64,000 bases of DNA from Ectothiorhodospiraceae bacterium WFHF3C12 (lineage in GTDB: Bacteria; Pseudomonadota; Gammaproteobacteria; Nitrococcales; Nitrococcaceae). The translations under genes were made by a program, and so were the position numbers. Of the stretch, positions 1-1,505 are shown in pieces. The DNA is taken from contig JACDUA010000017.1 in assembly GCA_013519935.1 (NCBI GenBank), positions 1 through 64,000 on the forward strand, written 5' to 3'. How positions within the stretch are numbered: position 1 is the stretch's first letter; the number at the start of each line of letters is the position of its first letter. The notes under the pieces are model-generated. The model was not told where the DNA came from. It saw nothing but the letters and a program-made list of their open reading frames with translations, and did no database searches.

Positions 1-20
1 CGTAGATACCGTCTCGCGGA

Positions 21-998
21 TCAAGCGATCTGCGGCGTATAGGGTGTCTGGTTTTTGATGACCCCGAAGCAGATGTGGACGAGCTTGCGCATGGCCGCCC
101 CCAGGGCGGCCATTTTGGCCTTGCCCCGGCTGCGTAAGCGCTGGTAGAAGGCGCGCACGTCGGGGTTGTGCTGGATGGCGCTGACGGCGGCCATGTAGAG
201 CTTGGCCCGGACGCGCCCGCTGCCCATCTTGCTCATACACGGGGGCAGCTCCTTGCTCGTGCCCGACTCAAAGACCTTCGGGTGTACGCCGACATAGGAA
301 GCCACCTGCTTGGCCCGGTCAAACGGATGCCGGTGGATGATGCTGAGCATCTCCCGGGAGCTCTTCGCGCTGATGCCCCGGATGGACTCGAGCAGCTCGC
401 GATCGCCCTTGAGCGGCGGATGCCGGTCGATATGCTCATCGATCATCCGCTCCAGGCGCCGTCTTTCGGCCTCGAGGAAGGCAAGACTGTTGCGAATGGA
501 GTCGATGACATCCTGCGGGGCTTGGGCCGTGAGCGCATGCTCGAGCCGGTTGGACTCGCGCTGAGCGTCCTTCTCCACCGCCTCAAGCCGTGCCAGCAGC
601 GCCCGCAAGGCCTTTACCTCCGGCGCCGGCGGGGTATAAGCCGCCAGCTCGCGGCTCTCGCCCATGCGCGCCAGCACGAACGCATCCTGGCGGTCGGCTT
701 TGGACTCAAAGCCTAGGCCCTCGGCAAACTTTTTGACCTGCTTGGGGTTGGGCGTGGCCACGCGCACGCCAAGCTCCACGAGCTCCTCCGCCAACGCCTC
801 GTGGTAGTGGGCCGTTGGCTCAAGAATCGCTTGCAGCGTATCGAGCCGCCCCTGGAGCTGGCGCTCCAGCCACTGGTACAGCGTGCGTCGACCGGCTGGC
901 GTATTCGCCACACTCTTGTTGCGCCGCTTGCCCTTAATCCAGATCAGGCAGGCCTGCAGCTTGTGCTTGCCAACATCGATCCCGCAGTGAAACTCCAT
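21..998 (-). CDS. IS110-family transposase (DEDD recombinase)
   Basis: 325-residue transposase of the IS110 family, which moves a circular element intermediate using an RNA guide. The N-terminal RuvC-like DEDD site is visible as D8 (in GIDVGKHK), E60 (in ILEPT), D102 and D105 (KADRQD). The C-terminal half carries the Transposase_20 region (LLESIRGIS, then YVGVHP). An ATG 20 codons upstream is also open, but the start at 998 is preceded by a perfect AGGAGGTGG ribosome site six bases away. The gene looks intact. The downstream end of the element lies at or before base 20, so that terminus is only partly inside the window. Confidence 0.93.
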   Translation of the reverse strand: MEFHCGIDVGKHKLQACLIWIKGKRRNKSVANTPAGRRTLYQWLERQLQGRLDTLQAILEPTAHYHEALAEELVELGVRVATPNPKQVKKFAEGLGFESKADRQDAFVLARMGESRELAAYTPPAPEVKALRALLARLEAVEKDAQRESNRLEHALTAQAPQDVIDSIRNSLAFLEAERRRLERMIDEHIDRHPPLKGDRELLESIRGISAKSSREMLSIIHRHPFDRAKQVASYVGVHPKVFESGTSKELPPCMSKMGSGRVRAKLYMAAVSAIQHNPDVRAFYQRLRSRGKAKMAALGAAMRKLVHICFGVIKNQTPYTPQIA

Positions 999-1019
999 CT
1001 CCACCTCCTGCTCTCGCGC

Positions 1020-1206
1020 TAACACCGACTGCCCTTGTACATGCAGGCTCACCGCCACGCGGGGCCTTGGATACCGTTCAGCCTACAAGGGCGAGAGCGG
1101 GCCTGGCGGGGCCTTATCTACAACACAGCCTACAACGCTGAGGTCGGATTCAGGCTCACCGCCAAGCCAGAGGGGCTAGCTAAACCCCTCAACCCGAAAA
1201 CATACA
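1020..1206 (-). ncRNA. Candidate IS110 bridge RNA region
   Basis: Non-coding stretch directly upstream of the transposase, where IS110-group elements encode the bridge RNA. It holds two tandem 47-bp units, 1059-1105 and 1106-1152. Both start with GCGGGGCCTT and both carry CAGCCTACAA 20 bases later; the 10-base segments between and after these are unrelated. The pair is flanked by two copies of CAGGCTCACCGCC (1044-1056 and 1151-1163), and GCCCTTGTA (1031-1039) is the reverse complement of 1084-1092. A hairpin GAGGGG/CCCCTC lies at 1170-1190. A fixed scaffold with two variable segments per unit is what two guide loops would look like. RNA ends are not determined. Confidence 0.45.
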
Positions 1207-1207
1207 A

Positions 1208-1505
1208 GGTCGGATACACCTGGCACCCGACGATCCGGCACCATCGGATAACGTCGATGCCCGCCGGCTGACAGGCTCGGGCCCGCGCCCGGCGGGTTCA
1301 GCCAGGGCGTAGGTCGGATGCACTTGGCATCCGACGATCCGGCACCGTGGGATAACGTCGGCGTCGGCCTGCGGCCGATGCCGACCTACTCGCGGCTTTC
1401 CAAAAGGCACGGGGCGTGGGTCGGATGCACCTGGCATCCGACGATCCGGCACCATCGGATAACGTCGATGCCGGCCGGCTGACAGGCTCGGGCCCGCGCC
1501 CGCGG
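1208..1505. repeat. Three tandem copies of a palindromic intergenic repeat
   Basis: Three near-identical units begin at 1208, 1312 and 1419, spaced 104 and 107 bp. Each opens with a stem-loop made of GTCGGATGC and GCATCCGAC around a five-base loop (copy 1 is slightly diverged), followed by GATCCGGCACC, GGATAACGTCG and, in copies 1 and 3, CCGGCTGACAGGCTCGGGCC. No coding potential is credible. The units sit between the IS110 element and the bacterioferritin gene. A related but degenerate sequence occurs near 49330-49400. Likely a REP/BIME-type chromosomal repeat. Confidence 0.8.

What the first reader, a model, noticed from the sequence alone, without database searches (positions are those of the whole stretch)
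1..1206. Duplicated 47-bp guide-like units upstream of an IS110 transposase that match the far end of the element
Seen: two tandem 47-bp units (1059-1105, 1106-1152) share GCGGGGCCTT and CAGCCTACAA at equal spacing while the intervening 10-mers differ. In unit 1 one variable segment contains GATACCGT (1070-1077), which recurs at bases 5-12, and the other contains GCGAGA (1091-1096), the reverse complement of bases 12-17. So both variable segments match one continuous 13-bp site (5-17) just past the transposase stop, on opposite strands. Known: IS110 bridge RNAs have two loops, each with two guides pairing to opposite strands flanking a core. Inference: 5-17 is a recombination junction and this region encodes the bridge RNA. 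The left junction was not resolved, and some short matches could be chance.
Basis: partly seen in the sequence, partly recalled or inferred. Interest (0 to 1): 0.8.

Follow-up and report, generated by a model that had tools for sequence, protein, structure and literature searches.

The report
Bridge-RNA jumping gene targeting repeats
The first 1.2 kb of the window is a complete IS110-type jumping gene whose own small RNA carries short guides matching both its insertion site (a repeated palindrome in this genome) and its own ends: a clear new relative of the known E. coli element IS621, but an ordinary one.

Summary
The repeated units and both short matches are real. The region is a complete 1,203-bp IS110-group insertion sequence (window 6-1208, gene on the minus strand; four copies in the genome, identical where assembled). 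It inserts at the CT core of a REP-like palindrome (TGTCGGATGGCAAGCCCATCCGACCTACG) and carries an IS621-type bridge RNA on the minus strand (about 1190-1005). A covariance model built from 17 relatives without this element finds it once in the window, at 1166-1022 (E 3.7e-28). All four guides are located: LTG 1149-1141, RTG 1121-1118, LDG 1077-1070, RDG 1042-1034. Across 20 elements the LTG matches its own flank at 123/140 positions (shuffled mean 60, maximum 91 in 100,000). The two 47-bp units are not the two loops: they pair the right half of the target loop with the left half of the donor loop. GCGAGA is not a guide but fits a stem at the base of the donor loop. The main target guide was missed. 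The near-identity of the two units is absent from relatives. Evidence is comparative; expression and transposition were not tested. New member of a known kind.

The parts
6..1208 (-). Complete IS110-group element, 1,203 bp counting one core dinucleotide
   Evidence: Flanks diverge outside 1-1215 among four copies; target and donor cores read at both ends
24..998 (-). Recombinase gene, 325 codons from ATG at 998 (stop at 21-23); the longer ORF from GTG 1058 would overlap the bridge RNA
   Evidence: PF01548, PF02371, NF033542; D8, E60, D102, D105, S245 align to IS621 catalytic residues
1..5 (-). Right junction: core CT (5-4) and retained target ACG (3-1)
1207..1215 (-). Left junction: retained target ATCCGAC (1215-1209) and core CT (1208-1207)
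1005..1190 (-). Bridge RNA region; core with both loops at 1166-1022, approximate outer limits
   Evidence: Model from relatives without this element, 102.6 bits, E 3.7e-28; folds
1170..1190 (-). 5' stem-loop GAGGGGTTTAGCTAGCCCCTC
1141..1149 (-). Left target guide ATCCGACCT
   Evidence: Identical to the left target; covariation over 20 elements
1118..1121 (-).
   Evidence: Register of IS621
1070..1077 (-).
   Evidence: Matches element end 5-12; covaries
1034..1042 (-).
   Evidence: Register of IS621; covaries in L017 and L096
1090..1097 (-).
   Evidence: Linker-tail pairing exceeds all 20,000 shuffles over 19 elements
19..24 (-). TTGATC, candidate -35 of the promoter formed only in the circle
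   Evidence: 17-bp spacing to TATGTT once RE is joined to LE
1199..1204 (-). TATGTT, candidate -10 of the circle-junction promoter

Best explanation
Window 6-1208 is a complete IS110-group insertion sequence that works like IS621. The excised circle joins the two ends at the CT core, which assembles a promoter that transcribes the bridge RNA from the left end. The target loop pairs with ATCCGAC-CT-AC, one foot of a REP-like palindrome; the donor loop pairs with the element's own ACGGTAT-CT-TGTAT junction; the recombinase (DEDD plus serine) exchanges strands at the shared CT and inserts the element. Shown here by sequence: ends, core, target family, four guides with covariation, RNA structure, catalytic residues, promoter geometry. 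Inferred from IS621: circle formation, transcription, strand exchange and present activity.
For: Recombinase families and catalytic residues. Ends and CT core. 33 exact target sites against 1 control, mostly in one palindrome. LTG matches own flank 123/140 against a shuffled maximum of 91 in 100,000; compensatory variants for RTG, LDG and RDG. Model from 17 relatives, 16 of 20 pairs with compensatory change, finds the window copy at E 3.7e-28 and IS621 at 1.9e-8.
Against: Three of 20 elements have poor LTG pairing (L045 4/7, L047 1/7, L092 5/7), perhaps moved or retargeted copies. The right half of the donor-loop handshake guide pairs at only one of two positions. The assembly breaks at every copy, so no copy is seen with both flanks on one contig. 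No expression data.
Confidence: 0.95

Rival explanations
1. One reading: the two 47-bp units are the two guide loops and both variable segments of unit 1 bind the site 5-17 on opposite strands.
For: The repeats and both matches exist; GATACCGT is indeed a donor guide.
Against: Folds, the covariance model and the IS621 register put the loops elsewhere. The GCGAGA segment pairs with element ends no better than shuffled pairings. Relatives lack the unit repeat.
Confidence: 0.03
2. The same element and RNA, but a decayed lineage that no longer moves.
For: Remnants of related copies exist at C105 and C80.
Against: Copies identical where assembled, intact reading frame, catalytic residues and guides.
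Confidence: 0.1

Closest known systems
IS621 of E. coli, IS110 group (PMC11208160, PMC11208158)
   Same: Recombinase domains and catalytic residues; bridge RNA in the left end; guide register; CT core; donor ACAGTAT-CT-TGTAT against ACGGTAT-CT-TGTAT here; insertion in a REP palindrome; promoter across the circle junction at the same offset
   Different: Target guide ATCCGACCT against ATCGGGCCT, so a different palindrome; different stem sequences; arms of the two loops nearly identical to each other here
IS110-group element at C7 of the same genome (L012, L034)
   Same: 48% identical recombinase, same donor ACGGTAT-CT-TGTAT
   Different: LTG GGCGCTCCT and target GCCGCTCCT; no decamer repeats
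IS1111 group / seekRNA elements (PMC11187229)
   Same: RNA-guided DEDD transposases
   Different: PMC11208160 places their RNA in a long right end with longer subterminal inverted repeats; here the RNA is in the left end and the right end is about 18 bp

Membership tests
IS110 family | RuvC-like DEDD domain and Tnp domain with conserved serine | tested here: met
IS110 group (not IS1111) | Bridge RNA in a long left end, short right end | tested here: met
   About 210 bp left end with the RNA, about 18 bp right end
IS110 group | CT core at both ends and in the target, no longer target duplication | tested here: met
   from separate left and right flanks and a paralogous empty site
IS621-type bridge RNA | Two loops with LTG/RTG and LDG/RDG matching target and donor | tested here: met
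IS621-type bridge RNA | Short subterminal inverted repeat flanking the donor | not tested
   Not examined
IS621-type bridge RNA | sigma70-like promoter across the RE-LE junction | tested here: inconclusive
   TTGATC-17-TATGTT, 8 of 12, best of the positions scanned; same offset as IS621
IS621-type bridge RNA | RNA is expressed and required for recombination | not testable with these tools
   Needs RNA sequencing and a recombination assay

The most novel reading that the evidence does not exclude
The near-identity of arms between the two loops in this element (12/13, 9/10 and 9/9 positions), in circularly permuted order, is a trace of half-loop modules being copied between target and donor loops, hinting at how two-loop bridge RNAs arose.
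Probability: 0.1. Interest if true: 0.5.

Novelty: new member of a known kind. Interest (0 to 1): 0.3.

Why it matters
It adds a clean, repeat-targeting bridge-RNA element with all four guides readable from sequence, and a set of relatives in which guide and target vary together. That enlarges the natural guide/target collection useful for programmable recombination, but does not change what is known of the mechanism.

Tried and rejected
Rfam 15 at E up to 1 gives no match in 1-2000. GCGAGA as a guide: rejected by shuffle test. Internal duplication as a family feature: rejected. IS621 inside the model alignment misplaced its LTG, so it was dropped and used as a test case. Elements left out of the guide test, after looking at the sequences: L018 and L019 (LTG one base off in the alignment), L050 and L100 (no clean left end or broken gene), L020, L036 and L038 (a distinct group). 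The poorly pairing L045, L047 and L092 were kept. Left ends were located with a pattern chosen after reading the sequences; guides were then read at fixed columns, not by searching for matches. The order-wide search added no closer relatives; plasmids gave only 44% relatives. A promoter scan of the linear element found none.

Full report
Observation. The units agree at 30 of 47 positions. A third repeated block, CAGGCTCACCGCCA, occurs at 1044-1057 and 1151-1164. The repeat AGGTCGGAT at 1141-1149 and 1207-1215, not mentioned, turned out to be the target guide and its target.

Ends. The window starts at the end of contig C78. The element also lies on C125, C167 and C98, identical wherever it is assembled. 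C167 and C98 give the sequence left of base 1, which differs at once; C78 and C125 differ right after 1215. All four contigs break at the element, so no copy has both flanks on one contig. In the direction of the gene (minus strand) the junctions read ATCCGAC-CT-TGTATG and ACGGTAT-CT-ACG. The intact target is therefore ATCCGAC-CT-ACG and the donor junction ACGGTAT-CT-TGTATG. A paralogous empty site agrees: the C98 left flank ...AAGGCACGGGGCGTAG matches the window's ...AAGGCACGGGGCGTGGGTCGGATGC.

Target family. ATCCGACCTAC occurs 33 times in the genome against 1 for the reversed control. Most of 30 sites inspected lie in the palindrome TGTCGGATGGCAAGCCCATCCGACCTACG, a REP-like repeat.

Recombinase. 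Family matches are PF01548, PF02371 and NF033542. D8, E60, D102, D105 and S245 align to D11, E60, D102, D105 and S241 of IS621 (PMC11208158). Alignment supports the ATG at 998 as start.

Guides. Left ends of 22 elements were aligned and guides read at fixed columns. In 20 of them the seven non-core LTG positions match the element's own flank at 123 of 140 positions; shuffled pairings average 59.6 and never exceed 91 in 100,000. Three pair poorly (L045, L047, L092). Other guides vary with their partners too: L099 has RTG TCAG with target CTGA where others have GTAG and CTAC; LDG variants ACG, ATG and ACA follow the donor end; L017 and L096 change CTTGT to CTTAT together with the RDG. The register equals the published IS621 positions.

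Independent model. A covariance model from 17 relatives without this element, 16 of 20 pairs with compensatory change, hits window 1166-1022 minus at 102.6 bits, E 3.7e-28, its only hit in 64 kb. In the genome it hits only the four copies and the C7 relative. IS621 scores 1.9e-8.

What the units are. The target loop reads X1-LTG-Y1-RTG-Z1 and the donor loop Y2-LDG-Z2-X2-RDG. Here X1/X2, Y1/Y2 and Z1/Z2 are nearly identical (12/13, 9/10, 9/9); in relatives within-element similarity does not exceed between-element similarity. What all share is a short motif, an A and a pyrimidine-rich triplet ending in G, before each guide, which corresponds to the conserved A and G reported for IS621. Why this element has the extra identity is not explained.

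GCGAGA. Its segment pairs with the RNA's own 3' tail (GCTCTCGC with GCGAGAGC). Over 19 elements this linker-tail pairing exceeds all 20,000 shuffles; linker-RE pairing is at the shuffled mean.

Promoter. RE joined to LE gives TTGATC-17-TATGTT, the best of the positions scanned, at the same offset as in IS621 and several relatives.

Self-targeting. The LTG in the DNA is followed by CA, not AC, so the element's own guide is not a full target; that this protects it is an inference.

Conclusion. The mechanism is the published bridge-RNA mechanism (PMC11208160, PMC11208158). This is a new member of that kind. Circle formation, expression and activity are inferred.

Noticed in passing
L132 (E. coli NN5), upstream of the IS621 gene: The left end is duplicated: the end of IS621 (CT-TGTATTATCC) is joined directly to its own target-guide DNA (ATCGGGC), as if IS621 had inserted into its own guide. 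The other top hits (H9-H12) are also split in two pieces.
   Followed up: no
L012 (C7:7035-8190): A second, 48% identical IS110 element with a different target guide; its target pattern GSCGCTCCTAC occurs 248 times in the genome against 65 for the control.
   Followed up: partly
L036, L038 and C13, C20, C96, C106, C129, C142, C163: A third IS110 group with nine copies, 31% identical; model R1 does not find its RNA. At C129 an exact ATCCGACCTACG site abuts one copy (L128).
   Followed up: no
L014 (C80:43930-43959) and L013 (C105:9088-9176): Short remnants of the element's left end and right end beside REP-like repeats.
   Followed up: partly
window 1207-1505: Tandem REP-like repeats beside the element; an exact unoccupied target lies at 1309-1319.
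   Followed up: partly
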